A stretch of DNA of 34,232 bases from a virus, in the IMG/VR virus record IMGVR_UViG_3300050015_000530, positions 1 to 34,232 of that record; one strand, 5' to 3'. Below are positions 4,556 through 21,270 of the stretch, in pieces. The notes below the pieces were generated by a model. The model was not told where the DNA came from, did not search any database, and saw only the letters and a list, made by a program, of their open reading frames with translations. Every line of letters begins with the position of its first letter. Positions within the stretch are counted from its first letter, which is position 1. The position numbers were made by a program, and so were the translations under genes.

Positions 4556-4637
4556 ACGGGCATCGTCTAATGGTAAGACACTCTCCGTCCAAGGGGAGAA
4601 ATAGGCTGCAGTCAGGGTTCAAATCCCCTTGTCCGTG
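4556..4637 (+). tRNA. tRNA-Gly(TCC)-like, G33, long variable region
   Basis: The acceptor ACGGGCA/TGTCCGT has discriminator G, and D-stem GTCT/AGAC is good. By standard numbering the loop is CGTCCAA (TCC) with G at position 33. A six-pair stem CTCTCC/GGGGAG would instead leave a six-base loop. The T-stem is imperfect. Identity and function are doubtful. Confidence 0.55.
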
Positions 4638-4642
4638 CAAAT

Positions 4643-4725
4643 GCGGGTGTGATGGAATGGTTAAGACATGCGTGCCTTAGAAGCACGTGCCGAAAGGCGT
4701 GGGGGTTCGACTCCCTTCATCCCTA
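4643..4725 (+). tRNA. tRNA-Leu(TAG)
   Basis: The anticodon arm CGTGC-CTTAGAA-GCACG is perfect (TAG). The class II variable arm TGCCGAAAGGCG is well formed. The acceptor GCGGGTG/CATCCCT has a C2/C71 mismatch. Discriminator A. Confidence 0.82.
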
Positions 4726-4759
4726 CTAAAAGTAAACAAAATTGTTTAGTTTATAAAAT

Positions 4760-4833
4760 GCAGGTGTAGTCGAATTGGTATAGACAACACGCTCAGACCG
4801 TGAAATTTGCGAGTTCGAATCTCGCCACCTGTA
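4760..4833 (+). tRNA. tRNA with CAG anticodon (Leu codon) but class I shape
   Basis: The acceptor GCAGGTG/CACCTGT has discriminator A, the loop is CTCAGAC (CAG) and the T-arm GCGAG/CTCGC is perfect. The variable region is only five bases. Genuine Leu tRNAs have a long arm, so either charging or identity is unusual. Confidence 0.8.
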
Positions 4834-4916
4834 CAAAATCGACTGTTATAGTTTTGACCGTGAGTTCTATAATGAAAATTTAAAGACTGATGGTGACACT
4901 CTGAGAGAAGAGACAC

Positions 4917-5863: not shown

Positions 5864-5937
5864 GGTCCAATACTTCAATCGGCAGAGGGGAACGGCTTAA
5901 ACCCGTTATAGTGTGGGTTCGAATCCCACTTGGACTA
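5864..5937 (+). tRNA. tRNA with TAA anticodon (Leu codon) but class I shape
   Basis: The acceptor GGTCCAA/TTGGACT has discriminator A and CCA is encoded at 5938-5940. The anticodon arm AACGG-CTTAAAC-CCGTT gives TAA. The variable region is only five bases, unlike normal Leu tRNAs. The T-arm GTGGG/CCCAC is perfect. Confidence 0.83.
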
Positions 5938-5984
5938 CCAAAATTGCCGGAAGCTGCCGGATAGGTAAAATCAAATAATTTTAT

Positions 5985-10128: not shown

Positions 10129-10479
10129 GGGGCAGCCTGGATTTGACAGCGTGGCAGAGTGGTATAGTAAGCAAGTGGTAGTTGAATCAGACTACGTTAA
10201 AAAGGTTCAAAACAACAAACGCAGAAGACATAATGTCTATTCCAACTTCTCTCACGAGAGGTAAAGCAGTATTCGCAAGACAAGCTGAACTTGCAATCGC
10301 AGCATAGGAATCAAAAAATTCGGCAAAGAACCCCGAACTCGATAGGGATAAATTCGAGACGGTTTGCGAATGAACCGTTGAAATCATTCGACATTTTGTT
10401 GGTTTAGGAAAATCAAATAAACTTGTAGAAAACGTATTAGTCGCATGACTGGACAAGGGTTCAACTCCCTTCTGCTCCA
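10129..10479 (+). ncRNA. ssrA: tmRNA with an unusually long tag reading frame
   Basis: The tRNA-like ends GGGGCAG/CTGCTCC with discriminator A, the 5' CTGGATTTGACAGCG block and the 3' T-arm AAGGG-TTCAACT-CCCTT identify tmRNA for trans-translation rescue of stalled ribosomes. After AACAACAAAC the likely resume codon is GCA at 10221. The frame is open to TAG at 10305-10307 and encodes 28 residues ending in AELAIAA. Usual tags have about 8-12 residues with ALAA-like ends. The ending fits a protease-recognition tag; the length is odd. Confidence 0.9.
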
Positions 10480-10502
10480 CTTCCACAAACTTTTCCGCAC
10501 TT

Positions 10503-11266: not shown

Positions 11267-11698
11267 ATGAGTTTGGATTACAAAAAAATGAAAAAATGGG
11301 CAGAATCTCCAGAAGGTATTGCTGTTCGTAATGAGTTTATTGAAAAAATGGCAAAGAAATTAAAAATTGCCGAAGGTCGTTATAAACGTTTCGAAGAATG
11401 GTTGAAAAACAATGACTTTGAGGCATTGATGTTCAGAGTAATTCACGAGCATGGTGATGACTACCAGGAAAAATGTATGCACAAGGGTTATGAGCCATAT
11501 CCAAACAACAAATTAGGATTTCTCATTGACTATCTTGTACATAATTTTGAGCCAATCGAAGTTCCGGAAATCGAACCTGAACATTTTCCAAGTACGATTT
11601 ATTTTTTCAAAGGATATTATTTTCAGACGATTTGCGGACAGGGTTGCTTTCACAGGATATACAATAAAGAAGACATGCGAATGGTATTGCAAGTATGA
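11267..11698 (+). CDS. Hypothetical phage protein (143 aa)
   Basis: A soluble 143-residue protein with a helical N-terminal half (KKMKKWAESPEGIAVRNEFI ... YKRFEEWLKNNDFEALMF) and a Tyr/Phe/Cys-containing C-terminal half (YFFKGYYFQTICGQGCFHRI). It is coupled to the downstream HNH gene by an ATGA overlap. Function unknown. Confidence 0.75.
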   Translation: MSLDYKKMKKWAESPEGIAVRNEFIEKMAKKLKIAEGRYKRFEEWLKNNDFEALMFRVIHEHGDDYQEKCMHKGYEPYPNNKLGFLIDYLVHNFEPIEVPEIEPEHFPSTIYFFKGYYFQTICGQGCFHRIYNKEDMRMVLQV

Positions 11699-12147
11699 AT
11701 AAAATTAAAAATAGAATAACTGACGAAAATTTTATTGCTGTCTGTGAATCATCGACAAGTATGGCACAAGCTGCGGCAACGCTGAAAATACATTTTAATA
11801 GTTTCAAAAAAAGGGCGAAAGAATTAAATTGTTATAACACAAATCAGTCGGGAAGTGGAACGCATAAAAGGTCTGGACGACTTATACCGATTGAAGAAAT
11901 TATTTTTGAGGGAAAACATCCAGAATATCAGACGTTTAAATTAAAAAATCGGTTAGTCAAAGAAGGTTATAAAAAAAACGAGTGTGAAGAATGTGGACAA
12001 ACAGATGTTTGGAATAACGAAAAACTTGAAATGGAATTAGACCATATTGACGGAAATCGGACTAATCATTTATTAAAAAATTTAAAAATGTTATGTCCTA
12101 ATTGTCATAGTCAAACAAAAACATTTTGTGGTAAGAATAAAACATAA
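11695..12147 (+). CDS. HNH homing endonuclease
   Basis: A 150-residue protein with an N-terminal HTH-like segment (SMAQAAATLKIHFNSFKKRA) and an HNH core: FKLKNRLVKEGYKKNECEECG, LEMELDHIDGNRTNHLLKNL, MLCPNCHSQTKTFCGKN. No GTATTTAT precedes it; it depends on coupling to the upstream gene. It ends one base before the tRNA-Leu at 12149, whose anticodon loop carries an insertion. Confidence 0.9.
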   Translation: MNKIKNRITDENFIAVCESSTSMAQAAATLKIHFNSFKKRAKELNCYNTNQSGSGTHKRSGRLIPIEEIIFEGKHPEYQTFKLKNRLVKEGYKKNECEECGQTDVWNNEKLEMELDHIDGNRTNHLLKNLKMLCPNCHSQTKTFCGKNKT

Positions 12148-12148
12148 T

Positions 12149-12255
12149 GGCGTAGTGGTGGAATTGGTAGACACGCTGGACTTAGTGCTTTAATCAGAGC
12201 AAATCAAATCCAGTGGGCAGTAATGTCCGTGTGGGTTCGACTCCCATCTTCGCTA
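12149..12255 (+). tRNA. tRNA-Leu(TAG) with a 21-nt hairpin inserted in the anticodon loop
   Basis: The Leu-type D-arm, class II variable arm, T-arm GTGGG/CCCAT and acceptor GGCGTAG/CTTCGCT (one mismatch, discriminator A) are clear. Stem CTGGA/TCCAG closes a 28-base loop: CTTAG, then 21 extra bases, then AA. Removing the insert gives CTTAGAA (TAG). The insert folds as TGCTTT/AGAGCA with a four-base loop. Function requires removal of the insert or tolerance of it. Confidence 0.75.
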
Positions 12256-12259
12256 CACA

Positions 12260-12267
12260 GTATTTAT
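12260..12267 (+). promoter_or_regulatory. GTATTTAT-class element
   Basis: GTATTTAT ends 14 nt before the start codon at 12282, directly after tRNA-Leu. Confidence 0.65.
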
Positions 12268-12281
12268 AGTAAAATATAATC

Positions 12282-12614
12282 ATGACTAAAATGAAAAATC
12301 CGTTTAAGAGCAAAAAGGAAGAAGTAAGTACTCCTGCTCCCGTTGAAAAAAAACTTAAAGTTCCTGTTGACATTTTGTTGGAAGAATGTATTAAAGGTGT
12401 TATTCATGAGGTCGCAAAAGAACATCATGCAGAAGCAAAAGAAATTATCAGATTGGGAAGCGATGATGACCGCAAAGAATTTCTTAAATATTACAAAGAA
12501 GACAAAGGCAACATCTGCTGTTTAGTTCTCGACAGAATTAAACGTGATTTAATAGCCAACGGTAAGATGGCATACGATAAAGAAGCTGCATTCGGACATC
12601 CATTTATGTTGTAA
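12282..12614 (+). CDS. Hypothetical phage protein (110 aa)
   Basis: A Lys-rich N-terminus with a Pro/Val linker precedes a helical domain (VDILLEECIKGVIHEVAKEH ... DDDRKEFLKYYKED ... CCLVLDRIKRDLIANGKMAY). It is coupled to the next gene by TAATG. No family recognised. Confidence 0.75.
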   Translation: MTKMKNPFKSKKEEVSTPAPVEKKLKVPVDILLEECIKGVIHEVAKEHHAEAKEIIRLGSDDDRKEFLKYYKEDKGNICCLVLDRIKRDLIANGKMAYDKEAAFGHPFML

Positions 12615-14718: not shown

Positions 14719-15105
14719 TTAGTGAAATATCGGAGTATCTTTATACTGCTCAATATCTTCTTTCCATTGTTGTGCTTCAGGTGTACCGATTTCTTCAAGT
14801 CTTCTGAGCAATATTGGAATTTCTTCTCTGTGAAAATTGAAAATTCTTCTGTTACCCAACGAACTGTTTTTTATTTCGAACTTACTCTTGGTAAAACCTT
14901 CAAGATGTGAGTCAATACCTTGATTAACTACCTCAGTAAATAATTTATCATCCGGACTACCAACAGGTGTTGTTATCGGCAAGAAATCCGGATTTGTTAC
15001 CTCTTCCTCTTTTTCATTAGATATTCCCTCATTAAGTTTGGGGTTGAACGATTTGTCAAGTCTTTGCATGACTTCGAAAAGTCTTTGTTTGTCGTATGTT
15101 TTCAT
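14719..15105 (-). CDS. Protein with KQRLFEVM N-terminal tag (128 aa)
   Basis: The first 25 residues (MKTYDKQRLFEVMQRLDKSF, then NPKLNE) match the starts of the proteins at 15485 and 19361, while the rest differs. The tag is an amphipathic helix ending in Leu-x-Glu, like T4 capsid-targeting sequences cleaved by the prohead protease. The body is acidic and helical (REEIPILLRRLEEIGTPEAQ). I infer a minor virion or internal-head protein; no enzymatic motif is visible. Confidence 0.7.
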   Translation of the reverse strand: MKTYDKQRLFEVMQRLDKSFNPKLNEGISNEKEEEVTNPDFLPITTPVGSPDDKLFTEVVNQGIDSHLEGFTKSKFEIKNSSLGNRRIFNFHREEIPILLRRLEEIGTPEAQQWKEDIEQYKDTPIFH

Positions 15106-15110
15106 GTTGC

Positions 15111-15485
15111 CTATTGTTTAAAGGGTTCATTCTGTAATTCGTTTGGTGTACCATTAGAATTCAGTTCACCAGTAATAAATTCTTGTTGTTCGGGTGCTAA
15201 CCACCAACTAACTGTTTCTGCAGGTGTTTGTAGTATGTCATAATCTACACCCAAGAAATTGTTTTGAAAAAACTGAATTAATTCTGCCTTTTCGTTTACA
15301 TTATTATTACCCTGAATGAAATCCATAACTTCTTGATACCACTTATATTGTGGAGAATCTTGTGGATTTACATATTTAGCGTGACCTGGAAAATCATTTA
15401 AGATTTTCTTATAGGTATTTTGACTGAAATTGGGTGCTACCCTTTCCATGACTTCGAAAAGTCTTTGTTTGTTATCTCTTTTCAT
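15111..15485 (-). CDS. Protein with KQRLFEVM N-terminal tag (124 aa)
   Basis: It begins MKRDNKQRLFEVMERVAPNF, the same tag as its downstream neighbour. The remainder is unrelated: YKKILNDFPGHAKYVNPQDS, a helical middle and a Trp-Trp-containing WWLAPEQQEFITGEL. It lies one base from the upstream gene stop and five from the next start, so it is in one operon. Likely a virion-associated protein by the tag argument; function unknown. Confidence 0.7.
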   Translation of the reverse strand: MKRDNKQRLFEVMERVAPNFSQNTYKKILNDFPGHAKYVNPQDSPQYKWYQEVMDFIQGNNNVNEKAELIQFFQNNFLGVDYDILQTPAETVSWWLAPEQQEFITGELNSNGTPNELQNEPFKQ

Positions 15486-15486
15486 A

Positions 15487-16323
15487 TTAACTGATATCTT
15501 CTACTTCCCATTCTGAGGCGTTTGACGCTGCATCTTCGCTTACTACCGTTGGTACGCCTCTATTTATTTTTATGTTTTTAACTATTTTCTGGTCAAGAAG
15601 TTTAGCAAGTTCATTATCGTTTAAAGGTGTATATGAAAAACCTTTCTGATAGCTTCTTGATATTCTGTGTTTTAATAATTCAGGGTCATTGGACTCAACA
15701 ACAGTGACTTCAACACTACGATATCTGCCTCTGTTTACCAGAGATTCAAGTGTGTTAAAAAATTTGTCGCTTTCTACTTGATATGTACTTGGTGTTGTAA
15801 CATTGAGATAATATCTACCGTCAATGTGTAAAATTATCGCCATTAATGTTTTGCCTTGAGCACCTACTTTTGTTTGGTCAGACATACTAATTTCTTCACC
15901 GTTACTCACGTTTATATTAAATCCCAAACCCATGCCATTTATTCTTCTGGCTTGACTGAGAAAACTCCACTGATGATTACCCTTTTCACCACGGAATGTC
16001 TGCCAGACATGAATCATTTCGTGAGCCAAAGTATCTCGGAATTGCCTGTATGATAGTTTGTAAAAACTTGACATCGAAAGATGTTGAACCTTTCTTTCAC
16101 CCGTAATTCTATTGTGTATGGATGAAACATGACCCAATGAAGTTTTTCTGTTATCCCACTTTAGCGGAACTTCACCCAATGAGTCGTTGAAAAGTAACTT
16201 GTTTAGCTTATTATATTCTTCACGTAGATTAATTTCCTGTGGATTAATAATATCCTCACTACCATATTCCTTCTCATTAAGAAACCCACCAATTTCTTCC
16301 TTTATTATGGAAATTATGCCCAT
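15487..16323 (-). CDS. SprT-like zinc metallopeptidase with IIKEE N-terminal tag
   Basis: This 278-residue protein carries HEMIHVWQ (HExxH at residues 101-105) after a SprT-like region (NKLLFNDSLGEVPLKWDN, then TSLGHVSS) and a downstream GNHQWSFLSQARRINGMG segment, as in SprT-family proteases. The first 17 residues (MGIISIIKEEIGGFLNE) are a short tag shared with 16776, 19772 and 20288 and end in Leu-Asn-Glu. I infer a packaged or injected protease acting on DNA-bound or host proteins. The C-terminal 120 residues are unassigned. Confidence 0.8.
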   Translation of the reverse strand: MGIISIIKEEIGGFLNEKEYGSEDIINPQEINLREEYNKLNKLLFNDSLGEVPLKWDNRKTSLGHVSSIHNRITGERKVQHLSMSSFYKLSYRQFRDTLAHEMIHVWQTFRGEKGNHQWSFLSQARRINGMGLGFNINVSNGEEISMSDQTKVGAQGKTLMAIILHIDGRYYLNVTTPSTYQVESDKFFNTLESLVNRGRYRSVEVTVVESNDPELLKHRISRSYQKGFSYTPLNDNELAKLLDQKIVKNIKINRGVPTVVSEDAASNASEWEVEDIS

Positions 16324-16326
16324 GAC

Positions 16327-16776
16327 TTAAAATGTTACTTCACAAATATTAGTTTTGAAATCAAAGTCTAATTCTCTCACAAATAAAAATCCACCGTTTT
16401 CAATCTCAACTTCGTTTACTTGAAATCTCCATTTGGTATCGGTGATATTCTTTGGTGTTTCCTGTGTAAGTGCATCGGTGTGTTTATCAAACATCTGCAT
16501 GATGTATTGACCCTCAACACTCTCAACCTCAATATTAAACTTATATATTCCTTCGGGATTTACTAAGAAGCTAACTCCCCAATGAACCATGATTTTGGAC
16601 CTTTGTATACCTGTGTCAAAGTCTGCCGTAAATGGTTCGTAGTTATAAAAATCGGCATTAACCATCTGTGCAAACCTGAGTCTGTCGTCTTTTACGAGCG
16701 TTGATGCAGGTTTATCTGTTGCAGTTTCACGGACCATATCGGTCAATTCTTCCTTAATAATGGATTTAATGCTCAT
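16327..16776 (-). CDS. Protein with IIKEE N-terminal tag (149 aa)
   Basis: The first gene of the minus-strand operon, starting 16 nt after GTATTTAT. MSIKSIIKEELTDMVRE matches the neighbouring tag. The rest is beta-rich (KIMVHWGVSFLVNPEGIYKF, FNIEVESVEG, WRFQVNEVEIENGGFLFV), suggesting a small beta-sandwich. No known family. Probably virion-associated if the tag is a targeting sequence. Confidence 0.7.
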   Translation of the reverse strand: MSIKSIIKEELTDMVRETATDKPASTLVKDDRLRFAQMVNADFYNYEPFTADFDTGIQRSKIMVHWGVSFLVNPEGIYKFNIEVESVEGQYIMQMFDKHTDALTQETPKNITDTKWRFQVNEVEIENGGFLFVRELDFDFKTNICEVTF

Positions 16777-17387: not shown

Positions 17388-18488
17388 ATGAAAGTACTTG
17401 AAAAAATCGATTGGTCAGTGTTGAACACTTACATCGACAACAACCTTATTATGGCAAACAAGCACCCAGAGTATGACATCTGGATTCTCAACTATTCTCC
17501 AAAGGTTCAGTCAAAGAAATTCTGGGATGACTACACACTGTCATGCAGAGGTTTAGTCATTGACGCTGACGGTAAAATTCTTGCACGTCCATTCAGAAAG
17601 TTCAAGAACTATGAGGAACACGACCCATCAGAAATCGACATGTCGAAGAAATTCGAAGTGTTCGAAAAAATGGATGGTTCACTCATCATATTGTTCTATT
17701 ACGAAGCACGTATGGAATGGATAATTGCCTCAAGAGGTTCATTCATTTCAGAACAAATGCTTGAAGCACAAAAAATGATTAATGCTTCAATATATGACAC
17801 ATTAAACATGCGCTTGACATACTTGTTTGAAATAATCTATCCAGAAAACCGTATCGTGGTTGACTATGGTAAGAGAAGGGAACTTGTTTTACTTACAGTA
17901 ATTGAAACGTCTACTGGTTACGAAGTGCCTTACCAAAGCGTACTTCCTACTTACTCGAAATACTTCACAGTCGTTAAGAAATACGATGTAACAATCAATA
18001 ATTTAAATGACTTAAGAAGAGTTGAGGAAGATAACAAAGAAGGATTTGTTGTGAGGTTCGAAGATGGTTTCAGAGTAAAAGTTAAGTTTGCAGAATACGT
18101 CAGATTACACGGTATTCTCACAAATGTCTCAAATTTAACGATTTGGGAACACTTGAAGAGTAACTACAACTTTGACGAACTACTTGACAGAGTTCCAGAC
18201 GAATTTTATGACTGGCTACAAAAGACTGTAAATATTTTGCAATCACAATACAATGATATCGAAAGAAATGCATTGAGAGAATTTCAAATCATTTACCATG
18301 TGAACGGTGTTACAGAACGTCCTGCATTCGCTGCGCAAGCAACTAAATCAGACTTACGTTCAATACTATTCAAGTTGTACGACAAAAGGTCATACAGTGA
18401 AATAATCTGGAAGATGATTCGACCAGTTTACAGCAAACCATTTAAAGATGGTCTCGAAGTCCAAGACTTTGAGTCAGAAGTATTATAA
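17388..18488 (+). CDS. T4 Rnl1-like RNA ligase
   Basis: A 366-residue ATP-dependent RNA ligase. Motif I is EKMDGSLI with the adenylated Lys at residue 94 (T4 Rnl1 uses Lys99), motif III/IIIa is FEIIYPENRIVVDYG, motif IV is KEGFVVRF and motif V is RVKVKFAEYVRLH. The upstream LSCRGLVID and ARPFRKFKNY segments also match the family. Such ligases rejoin tRNAs cut in the anticodon loop by host nucleases such as PrrC. It is the second gene of an operon with the methyltransferase and is closed by an intrinsic terminator. Confidence 0.93.
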   Translation: MKVLEKIDWSVLNTYIDNNLIMANKHPEYDIWILNYSPKVQSKKFWDDYTLSCRGLVIDADGKILARPFRKFKNYEEHDPSEIDMSKKFEVFEKMDGSLIILFYYEARMEWIIASRGSFISEQMLEAQKMINASIYDTLNMRLTYLFEIIYPENRIVVDYGKRRELVLLTVIETSTGYEVPYQSVLPTYSKYFTVVKKYDVTINNLNDLRRVEEDNKEGFVVRFEDGFRVKVKFAEYVRLHGILTNVSNLTIWEHLKSNYNFDELLDRVPDEFYDWLQKTVNILQSQYNDIERNALREFQIIYHVNGVTERPAFAAQATKSDLRSILFKLYDKRSYSEIIWKMIRPVYSKPFKDGLEVQDFESEVL

Positions 18489-19360: not shown

Positions 19361-19771
19361 ATGAAAAAATATAACAAACAAAGACTTTTCGAAGTCATGC
19401 AAAGAGTTGCACCCGATTTTACAGGTATGGTATCTGAAGCAAATAACTCAAGCAGATTAGATGCTTCAACTCGTAGTAAAATTAACAGGGAATTGTCAAA
19501 ACTTCCAAATTATCACGAAGGAATTCCATTGGATTTGATTGAAAACATATTAGAAAAATATGGCTTGGTAATACTTCAAGAAGACAATACTGCCTATGAG
19601 GGCATCTTTACGGGCGAAGAAGGTCGTGCACAAATTGCACTTGGCTATATAAACACTGGACATGATGAAAATGGTCTAACAGCCTATAAGCCAATAGATA
19701 ACAGTATGTTAATTATGACTTGGTATAAAATGGGAAGTGGAAAATATGAAATTGTTTCTTATTTATCATAA
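19361..19771 (+). CDS. Protein with KQRLFEVM N-terminal tag (136 aa)
   Basis: The start at 19361 gives MKKYNKQRLFEVMQRVAPDF, the tag also seen at 15105 and 15485 on the other strand. An upstream in-frame ATG at 19340 overlaps the peptidase gene and is less likely. The body contains LPNYHEGIPLDLIENILEKY and a beta-rich second half (RAQIALGYINTG, SMLIMTWYKMG). Function unknown; virion targeting is inferred from the tag. Confidence 0.7.
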   Translation: MKKYNKQRLFEVMQRVAPDFTGMVSEANNSSRLDASTRSKINRELSKLPNYHEGIPLDLIENILEKYGLVILQEDNTAYEGIFTGEEGRAQIALGYINTGHDENGLTAYKPIDNSMLIMTWYKMGSGKYEIVSYLS

Positions 19772-20287
19772 ATGAAAAACATTGTTGACATCATAAAAGA
19801 AGAAATTGATGATTTGCGGTATCAGTTGGCAGGATATAAACACGATGAAAAATTAGTATCCTATAATAAGGTATATCATGTAACACCAATACAAATAGCA
19901 AACGAAATATTATTAAAAGGAATAATTAAAAATAGTCCGTCAAGCCAAGAACCAGAAGCAATATATTTAACCTCAGATATTCACGGTGCTGTTTTATTAT
20001 GTAAACGATTGAGTGAAGCAAAGAGAATAAAAACTGATTGGGTTATATTAAAAATAAATTCAACTAATTTGAAACTATATAAAGACCCATATTCCATTAA
20101 AGAAGCAGGAATTTACACTTATGACAATATTCCCAAAGAATTAATTAAATTTGAAACAATTGTTGATGGTGAAATATTAAAAAATAACAATAACTGGAAA
20201 TTATTTTGGAATTGGTGGTTTTGGGGGTCTGGCACAAAACCAGACTTTATAAAGAAATTCGCTTTAAATCAATATAATATAAAATAA
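19772..20287 (+). CDS. ADP-ribosyltransferase-like protein with IIKEE tag
   Basis: A 171-residue protein starting MKNIVDIIKEEIDDLRYQ. The body follows an ART-like layout: VYHVTPIQIANEILLKGI (His-containing first strand and helix), AIYLTSDIHGAVLLCKRL (Tyr strand and helix), WVILKINSTNLKL and YTYDNIPKELIKF. This recalls KptA/DarT-like or toxin ART folds, but the catalytic triad is not certain. The start directly abuts the previous stop. It may modify host proteins or nucleic acid, as T4 Alt does after injection. Confidence 0.55.
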   Translation: MKNIVDIIKEEIDDLRYQLAGYKHDEKLVSYNKVYHVTPIQIANEILLKGIIKNSPSSQEPEAIYLTSDIHGAVLLCKRLSEAKRIKTDWVILKINSTNLKLYKDPYSIKEAGIYTYDNIPKELIKFETIVDGEILKNNNNWKLFWNWWFWGSGTKPDFIKKFALNQYNIK

Positions 20288-20794
20288 ATGAAAAGTGTTG
20301 TCGATATTATAAAAGAAGTGATTGCTGAAGACTATAATCATAGTAATTACTTAAAGTGGAAACGACAAAACGTAACCATTAGAGGTATGCAGGAAGTAGG
20401 TAAAGAAAATAATGGAATGGCTTCTTTTGGTCAGGGTTTGTACACAGCAGCATTAGGTAATAAAGAATTGGCAAGAAAATATGGTAAAGTATATTTTGTT
20501 GTTGGTGCTATACCAAAACATCCCAAAATTGTTAATAATTGGAATGAAGCAGAAATTTTTACACAAAAAGTAGTAATGCTTTATGGTAAAGAAAATGGTA
20601 TTGACGATTATTTTGATGCAAAAAGAGATTTTGACACAAAAACAAACGTTAAAGACGAAATGCTTAAATTAGGATATGATGGTTTAGTAATTAAGGGTCG
20701 TGAAATGGTAAATTATACTCCCGATAACGATAATATCCGATATTTCAACAACGAAAATGAATTAATGAATTATTACGAATATGTTGTTTCATAA
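20288..20794 (+). CDS. Putative ADP-ribosyltransferase (polyvalent-protein type) with IIKEE tag
   Basis: A 168-residue protein beginning MKSVVDIIKEVIAEDYNH. It then shows MASFGQGLYTAALGNKELARKYG, VYFVVGAIPKHP, a helical middle, and MLKLGYDGLVIKGREMVNYT followed by DNIRYF, a pattern of small ART domains found in phage polyvalent proteins (G-x-GLY-T ... GYDG-VI ... E ... Y-P). It abuts the preceding ART-like gene with no gap. The tag and pairing suggest an injected effector. Confidence 0.6.
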   Translation: MKSVVDIIKEVIAEDYNHSNYLKWKRQNVTIRGMQEVGKENNGMASFGQGLYTAALGNKELARKYGKVYFVVGAIPKHPKIVNNWNEAEIFTQKVVMLYGKENGIDDYFDAKRDFDTKTNVKDEMLKLGYDGLVIKGREMVNYTPDNDNIRYFNNENELMNYYEYVVS

Positions 20795-21152: not shown

Positions 21153-21265
21153 GGGAATGTGGCAGAGTGGTATGTGCAGACTGAATTGGTATACTACGTG
21201 GGTTTACAACCTTAACACGTAGAAGGGGTCTGATAAGTACGTGAGTTCGAATCTCACCATCCTCA
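21153..21265 (+). tRNA. tRNA-like gene with a complex internal insertion
   Basis: The acceptor GGGAATG/CATCCTC (one A/C mismatch, discriminator A), a Ser-like D-arm GCAGAGTGGTATGTGC and a perfect T-arm GTGAG/CTCAC bracket an oversized centre. There CAGAC/GTCTG encloses a second D-like stretch AATTGGTATAC and a long arm CTACGTG/CACGTAG topped by GGTTTACAACC. The anticodon cannot be assigned. It may be a chimera of two tRNAs. Confidence 0.5.
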
Positions 21266-21270
21266 CAAAT

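What the first reader, a model, noticed from the sequence alone, without database searches (positions are those of the whole stretch)
12149..12255. 21-nt hairpin inserted in the anticodon loop of tRNA-Leu(TAG)
All arms of a class II Leu tRNA are intact, but the anticodon loop is 28 bases. Deleting the 21-base insert between positions 36 and 37 restores CTTAGAA. The insert makes its own six-pair hairpin. It is far too small for a group I intron. An endonuclease cut plus the phage RNA ligase could in principle splice it, giving a bacterial-virus version of enzymatic tRNA splicing.
Basis: partly seen in the sequence, partly recalled or inferred. Interest (0 to 1): 0.72.

Follow-up and report, generated by a model that had tools for sequence, protein, structure and literature searches.

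The report
Tiny intron-like insert in phage tRNA
A bacterial virus carries a leucine tRNA gene whose anticodon is split by a 21-letter hairpin that recurs in other viruses; if the viruses really cut it out and rejoin the tRNA, it would be an enzyme-spliced tRNA intron in a bacterial virus.

Summary
The tRNA at 12149-12255 has a 28-nt anticodon loop holding a 21-nt hairpin insert. The identity is corrected: in 12 related phages the same syntenic gene is an uninterrupted tRNA-Leu(UAA) with loop CTTAAAA, and cutting out 12185-12205 (CTTA|21 nt|AAA) restores that loop. L003 matches the window's exons at 85 of 87 positions. So it is Leu(UAA), not Leu(UAG).

The same-length insert sits at the same site in three other phage lineages; stem pairing is kept, the 6-nt loop varies. 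On a tree the carriers are not one clade. A Leu-pattern scan of 84,980 cellular genomes gave one hit, a true group I intron in the same tRNA whose HNH gene is 42% identical to the HNH gene 2 nt upstream of the window tRNA. That HNH family sat beside tRNA-Leu or its remains in all 12 loci inspected.

Best reading: a mini-intron at a homing site, removed by a nuclease and rejoined by the phage Rnl1-type ligase. Removal is inferred. Archaeal-type tRNA endonuclease, RtcB and RNase III were not found in the records searched. Main rival: an unspliced scar that protects against the HNH enzyme. Only RNA data can decide.

The parts
12149..12184 (+). 5' exon of tRNA-Leu(UAA), ending C32-U33-U34-A35
   Evidence: RF00005 and ARAGORN; orthologues with CTTAAAA
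12185..12205 (+). 21-nt insert GTGCTTTAATCAGAGCAAATC, intron-like
   Evidence: Alignment A1 and pair table; same length in L006/L014, L019, L005
12186..12201 (+). inner hairpin of the insert: 5 conserved pairs, 6-nt variable loop (a sixth pair in the window only)
   Evidence: fold; pairs; one compensatory pair and one U.G to U-A change
12206..12255 (+). 3' exon of tRNA-Leu(UAA), starting A36-A37-A38; discriminator base at 12255
11695..12147 (+). HNH endonuclease gene of a tRNA-Leu-linked family, ends 2 nt before the tRNA
   Evidence: PF01844 3.1e-5; 42% identical to HNH in a group I intron of a Saprospiraceae tRNA-Leu; beside tRNA-Leu in 12 of 12 loci inspected
17388..18488 (+). T4 Rnl1-type RNA ligase, candidate joining enzyme
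   Evidence: PF09511 1e-19; TIGR02308 94 bits, under its 242-bit cut-off
21153..21266 (+). second tRNA with an enlarged anticodon loop (46 nt between CAGAC and GTCTG, inner 7-bp hairpin)
   Evidence: homologue L001 13124-13236 with two compensatory pairs and identical hairpin loop

Best explanation
The 21-nt sequence is a mini-intron in the anticodon of tRNA-Leu(UAA). Shown: it sits between A35 and A36, forms its own 5-bp hairpin with a 6-nt loop, and recurs at the same site and length in four phage lineages, while 12 related lineages have the uninterrupted gene at the same place. Inferred: the precursor is cut at CUUA^G and C^AAA, both inside the internal loop between the anticodon stem and the insert's hairpin, by a phage or host ribonuclease. 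The two halves, held together by the tRNA body, are joined by the phage Rnl1-type ligase to give CUUAAAA. Also inferred: the insert occupies the target of a tRNA-Leu-specific HNH homing endonuclease, so it shields the gene, and spread by gene conversion together with that enzyme explains its patchy distribution.
For: Orthologous sites: 4 lineages with the insert (window, L006/L014, L019, L005) and 12 without; all 12 read CTTAAAA. Window exons are 97.7% identical to insert-free L003. All four keep CTTA on the left and AAA on the right, as excision requires. Over the whole structure 97.4% of pair cells pair and 11 of 29 pairs change on both sides; the insert hairpin keeps 100%, with one two-sided change and one U.G to U-A. 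Three random stem substitutions would keep all five pairs in 108 of 3240 cases, 3.3%. UUA is the commonest Leu codon, 165 of 407 in 27 window ORFs, and this is the only class II Leu(UAA) seen in the window. Rnl1-type ligase present. A second, unrelated 26-nt hairpin insert splits tRNA-Leu(UAA) in four other phage lineages, again restoring CTTAAAA, and in L043 the interrupted tRNA lies 55 nt downstream of an Rnl1-type ligase, 45% identical to the window's. HNH-tRNA-Leu link in 12 of 12 loci inspected and group I introns at the same anticodon in L084 and L096.
Against: No transcript was seen. No splicing endonuclease found: PF01974 0 of 8, RtcB 0 of 13, RNase III 0 of 9, though most records are fragments. 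The fold shows no bulge-helix-bulge. A kinase hit (AAA_33) occurs in 3 of 13 records; the one in an insert-bearing record is a 178-aa protein without a phosphatase domain. Insert-free relatives carry the same ligase. The HNH gene is absent beside the tRNA in two of four carriers, L005 and L019, and present beside uninterrupted tRNA-Leu(UAA) in L085 and L089-L093. Hairpin covariation rests on one two-sided pair in four sequences.
Confidence: 0.45

Rival explanations
1. Unspliced homing scar. The 21-nt insert destroys the target of the tRNA-Leu-specific HNH endonuclease and is copied between phages by gene conversion. The tRNA is inactive and the host supplies Leu(UAA).
For: HNH family beside tRNA-Leu in 12 of 12 inspected loci, some with broken-off 5' halves of tRNA-Leu upstream; HNH 2 nt from the tRNA in the window and next to it in L006/L014; patchy distribution, AU p = 0.0175 against one clade.
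Against: Body, hairpin and exact flanks are maintained in all four carriers; carriers L005 and L019 have no neighbouring HNH; several uninterrupted tRNAs live next to the HNH.
Confidence: 0.27
2. The insert stays in the mature RNA and has a function of its own, for example a tRNA that resists or baits host anticodon nucleases.
For: Phage tRNAs that differ in the anticodon loop from host tRNAs are reported to evade tRNA-cutting defences (PMC10264068, title and passages seen); the hairpin is conserved.
Against: The anticodon is split, so decoding is not possible as it stands; nothing but splicing requires the flanks to stay CTTA and AAA. That paper's held text has no 'insertion' or 'intron'.
Confidence: 0.12
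3. Shrunken relic of a group I intron (its P1 region) that once sat in this tRNA.
For: Group I introns at the same anticodon in L084 and L096; the insert resembles the first 25 nt of the L084 intron: scores reached by 37, 9, 126 and 454 of 2000 shuffles for window, L006, L019, L005.
Against: The resemblance is weak and absent for L005; no group I match in the window; the insert ends in C, not the terminal G of group I (rule recalled); constant length and kept pairing do not look like decay.
Confidence: 0.1
4. Assembly or sequencing artefact, or a pseudogene by chance.
For: The record is a metagenomic virus fragment of 34,232 bases.
Against: Same-length insert in four lineages from separate records with lineage-specific sequence.
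Confidence: 0.02

Closest known systems
Group I self-splicing introns of tRNA-Leu(UAA) (bacteria; here L084 Saprospiraceae MAG and viral L096)
   Same: Same tRNA, same anticodon, excision restores CTTAAAA; linked to the same HNH family.
   Different: They are about 200 nt or more with a catalytic core (RF00028, 50.7 and 52.2 bits); the insert is 21 nt with no core.
Archaeal and eukaryal enzymatically spliced tRNA introns
   Same: Short, structured, in the anticodon loop, would need endonuclease plus ligase.
   Different: No bulge-helix-bulge in the fold, position 35/36 instead of the usual 37/38 (recalled), no PF01974 or RtcB gene found. [quoted passage not shown]
T4 Pnkp/Rnl1 repair of tRNA cut by the anticodon nuclease PrrC
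   Same: Phage Rnl1-family ligase rejoining halves in an anticodon loop (PMC3400036).
   Different: Repair removes nothing; here 21 nt must be cut out, and no kinase-phosphatase was found in the window.
Free-standing HNH homing endonucleases of phages
   Same: HNH gene beside its presumed target gene.
   Different: An insert of constant length with a kept hairpin inside a structural RNA is not part of that kind as I know it (recalled).

Membership tests
Group I intron | catalytic core (RF00028) | tested here: not met
   no RF00028 match in the window at gathering or at 12000-12400 up to E = 1; L084 and L096 match as positive controls
Group I intron | terminal G at the 3' splice site | tested here: not met
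   insert ends in C in all four carriers
Archaeal/eukaryal tRNA intron | bulge-helix-bulge at the splice sites | tested here: not met
   minimum-free-energy fold gives a 5 x 7 internal loop, no two 3-nt bulges 4 bp apart
Archaeal/eukaryal tRNA intron | tRNA-splicing endonuclease (PF01974) | tested here: inconclusive
   0 of 8 viral records, 4 of the 8 over 200 kb; fragments and hosts not covered
Archaeal/eukaryal tRNA intron | intron removed, exons joined | not testable with these tools
   needs RNA
T4-type tRNA repair | Rnl1-family ligase | tested here: met
   PF09511 1e-19, 71.7 bits, cut-off 28.3; TIGR02308 94 bits, below its equivalog cut-off of 242
T4-type tRNA repair | polynucleotide kinase-phosphatase | tested here: inconclusive
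   AAA_33 in 3 of 13 records, none in the window; the L005-phage protein is 178 aa, kinase-like only
HNH homing endonuclease at tRNA-Leu | HNH domain and constant neighbourhood of tRNA-Leu | tested here: met
   PF01844; 12 of 12 loci inspected out of 14 returned, the other 2 being near-copies
HNH homing endonuclease at tRNA-Leu | cuts the uninterrupted anticodon-loop DNA | not testable with these tools
   needs enzyme assay

The most novel reading that the evidence does not exclude
Bacterial viruses have evolved enzymatic tRNA splicing: at least two unrelated classes of tiny hairpin introns (21 and 26 nt, perhaps also other forms in other tRNAs) interrupt anticodon loops of phage tRNAs and are removed by a nuclease and rejoined by the phage Rnl1 ligase. 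Rnl1 would then be a splicing ligase as well as a repair ligase, and a tRNA could be made conditional on nuclease activity during infection.
Probability: 0.35. Interest if true: 0.88.

Novelty: new variant of a known kind. Interest (0 to 1): 0.7.

Why it matters
The review I read states that bacterial tRNA introns are self-splicing group I elements, while protein-spliced ones belong to archaea and eukaryotes (PMC3400036, passages). A 21-nt, structured, orthologously present-or-absent insert in a bacterial virus is too small for group I, so if the tRNA is used it must be spliced by proteins. That would give the common phage RNA ligases a second role and offer a small system for studying how enzymatic tRNA splicing can arise. 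If it is a scar instead, it is a clean case of a mobile nuclease shaping a structural RNA.

Tried and rejected
Leu(TAG) identity: rejected by syntenic orthologues and by the separate Leu(TAG) gene at 4643-4726. Group I intron: rejected by size and by no RF00028 match in the window. Bulge-helix-bulge intron: not in the fold. Insert and HNH gene as a fixed pair: rejected as a rule, since two carriers lack the HNH and several non-carriers have it. Kinase as part of a T4-type set: left open; the hit in the L005 phage carries the same N-terminal leader as several window proteins and lacks a phosphatase. RNase III as the cutter: the 26-nt class, if excised to restore CTTAAAA, would leave a 2-nt 3' overhang like an RNase III product (inference from the pair table), but no phage RNase III was found (0 of 9) and the 21-nt class does not have this geometry.

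Wider searches: pattern scans of viral contigs gave three viral lineages besides the window for the 21-nt class. In one search, 12 stretches matched: 4 were known copies and 8 were unrelated DNA without a tRNA. In one search, 36 stretches matched; most are ordinary tRNAs or coding DNA. The genome-contig scan gave one hit, a group I intron; its pattern fixes the D-loop GGTAGACAC, and no known carrier was in that collection as a control. A model of the arm (R1) found the five known copies in 37 loci and nothing else below E = 0.5, and 0 of 395 genomes of the phylum of the L084 genome under stricter filters, which the tool says shows nothing by itself. phages collection: no near match. Family B alignment A5 was misaligned for one row, so its pairs were read by hand.

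Papers: searches listed no report of such inserts; the library lacks most subscription papers and preprints. Read only as passages: PMC3706429, PMC10865867, PMC10264068, PMC3400036; the others only as listings.

Full report
What is there. RF00005 matches 12149-12255 at 42 bits with every arm present. ARAGORN finds the gene only when introns are allowed and then reports 21 inserted bases. The anticodon stem is CTGGA/TCCAG, the loop is CTTAGTGCTTTAATCAGAGCAAATCAAA, 28 nt. The stretch 12174-12216 around the anticodon arm folds better than 200 of 200 shuffles, z = -3.88. The record is a 34,232-base viral fragment.

Which tRNA it is. Searching viral contigs with the window's RNA ligase gave 16 loci and with the gene upstream of the tRNA (w11267) 23 loci. 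In 12 lineages with the same gene order (L001, L003, L007, L008, L011, L058, L059, L061, L063, L064, L067, L069) the gene is an uninterrupted tRNA-Leu with loop CTTAAAA. Other loci with no Leu(UAA) at that place, or not assessed, are not counted. Removing 12185-12205 turns the window gene into that tRNA; against L003 85 of 87 bases agree. So this is tRNA-Leu(UAA). UUA is the commonest Leu codon in the window, 165 of 407.

The insert is a family. The same site holds exactly 21 nt in L006/L014, L019 and L005. Sequences: GTGCTTTAATCAGAGCAAATC, GTGCTTCGAATAGAGCAAATC, GTGCTTCAGATAAAGCAAATC, GTACTTCATACAAAGTAACCC. Shared plan: G, five pairs around a variable 6-nt loop, then four bases ending in C, then AAA. 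All hairpin cells pair; one pair changes on both sides and one from U.G to U-A. Three random substitutions in this stem would keep all pairs in 3.3% of cases, so the support for the hairpin is moderate. Over the tRNA and hairpin together 11 of 29 pairs have two-sided changes, against 3.4 in shuffles, but many may predate the insert. Mismatches are not clearly more frequent in carriers: T5/T68 in window and L006, also in insert-free L058 and L059; one more in the L006 anticodon stem.

Distribution. A tree of six concatenated proteins (23 rows, 17 scored: 5 with, of which L006 and L014 are near-copies, and 12 without) needs three changes; one clade for the carriers is rejected with AU p = 0.0175. 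Support is modest: 7 of 20 inner branches are starred, and these force at least two changes. So the insert was gained, lost or moved more than once.

The neighbourhood. The HNH gene 11695-12147 stops 2 nt before the tRNA. Its relatives in viral contigs (14 loci, 12 inspected, 2 near-copies left out) all lie within about 100 nt of a tRNA-Leu, a 5' half of one, or a tRNA-Leu split by a group I intron. Its relative in a Saprospiraceae MAG (42% identical) sits inside a group I intron in tRNA-Leu(UAA) (RF00028 50.7 bits); L096 has a group I intron in the same tRNA with the HNH outside (52.2 bits). So the anticodon of tRNA-Leu(UAA) looks like a homing site for this HNH family (cutting itself is inferred). 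But L005 and L019 have the insert without the HNH next to it, and L085 and L089-L093 have the HNH beside an uninterrupted Leu(UAA); in L093 the HNH reading frame is broken.

A second class. The general Leu pattern also found a 26-nt insert in tRNA-Leu(UAA) of L028/L047, L030/L041, L040 and L043. Taking it out restores CTTAAAA; two insert pairs vary with pairing kept. In L043 the tRNA follows an Rnl1-type ligase directly on the same strand. Rnl1-type ligase is found in 3 of 8 records that were searched for it, which include L039 and L021; three of the misses are contigs under 17 kb. L039 has a 41-nt insert.

Other enlarged anticodon loops. Among 299 tRNAs called in 23 loci of the window's clade, ARAGORN reports an insert in 11, of which 4 are the 21-nt class, 4 are 12-24 nt (window 21153, L003, L007, L009) and 3 are 2-3 nt and probably noise. 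The 21153 gene has a homologue in L001 with two compensatory changes in a 7-bp hairpin and an identical 15-nt hairpin loop; which amino acid it serves I could not settle.

Enzymes. Ligase yes. PF01974 0 of 8, RtcB 0 of 13, RNase III 0 of 9, AAA_33 kinase 3 of 13. Records are mostly fragments and hosts are unknown, so absence is weak.

Weighing. For splicing: exact restoration of one and the same loop in four lineages, kept flanks, kept body, kept hairpin, codon demand, ligase. Against: no RNA evidence, no cutter, and a ready alternative in the HNH story. The two are compatible: an insert that shields the site and is then spliced out. I give the spliced mini-intron 0.45 and the unspliced scar 0.27.

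Known or new. I found no paper describing such inserts in the held library. Against group I introns, and against the bulge-helix-bulge of archaeal-type introns, the defining features tested are not met. I therefore call it a new variant of a known kind (tRNA introns), with the stronger claim, protein splicing of phage tRNA, left to RNA data.

Noticed in passing
window 21153-21266; L001 13124-13236: A second tRNA with a 46-nt anticodon loop holding a covarying 7-bp hairpin and an invariant GGTTTACAACCTTAA loop, between Tyr tRNAs in the window; identity unclear.
   Followed up: partly
L003 8042-8126, L007 12864-12951, L009 2796-2884: tRNA downstream of the ligase with 12-15 extra bases in the anticodon loop in three phages.
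   Followed up: partly
L028 7552-7664, L030 643-756, L040 12501-12613, L043 2325-2436: 26-nt hairpin inserts in tRNA-Leu(UAA); in L043 directly downstream of an Rnl1-type ligase.
   Followed up: partly
window 10129-10480: Phage-encoded tmRNA (RF00023, 102 bits) close to the tRNA-Leu; also in L001, L003, L004, L011, L019.
   Followed up: no
window 14719-16776 (-), 19361-20794 (+): Seven proteins share one of two N-terminal leaders (KQRLFEVM or IIKE-type), with L/I-x-E motifs like the capsid-targeting, protease-cleaved leaders of T4 internal head proteins (recalled); one is SprT-like; a kinase in the L005 phage has the first leader.
   Followed up: partly
L093 about 2417-2448, L094 about 2404-2440, L087 about 1350: Broken-off 5' pieces of tRNA-Leu upstream of HNH or other endonuclease-like genes, most ending near the anticodon arm: likely traces of homing events.
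   Followed up: partly
window 4556-4638: tRNA called with a four-base anticodon (ccaa), i.e. an 8-nt loop.
   Followed up: no
window 5864-5940 and 4760-4834: Leu-anticodon tRNAs with short variable loops, unlike class II tRNA-Leu; similar ones in many relatives.
   Followed up: no
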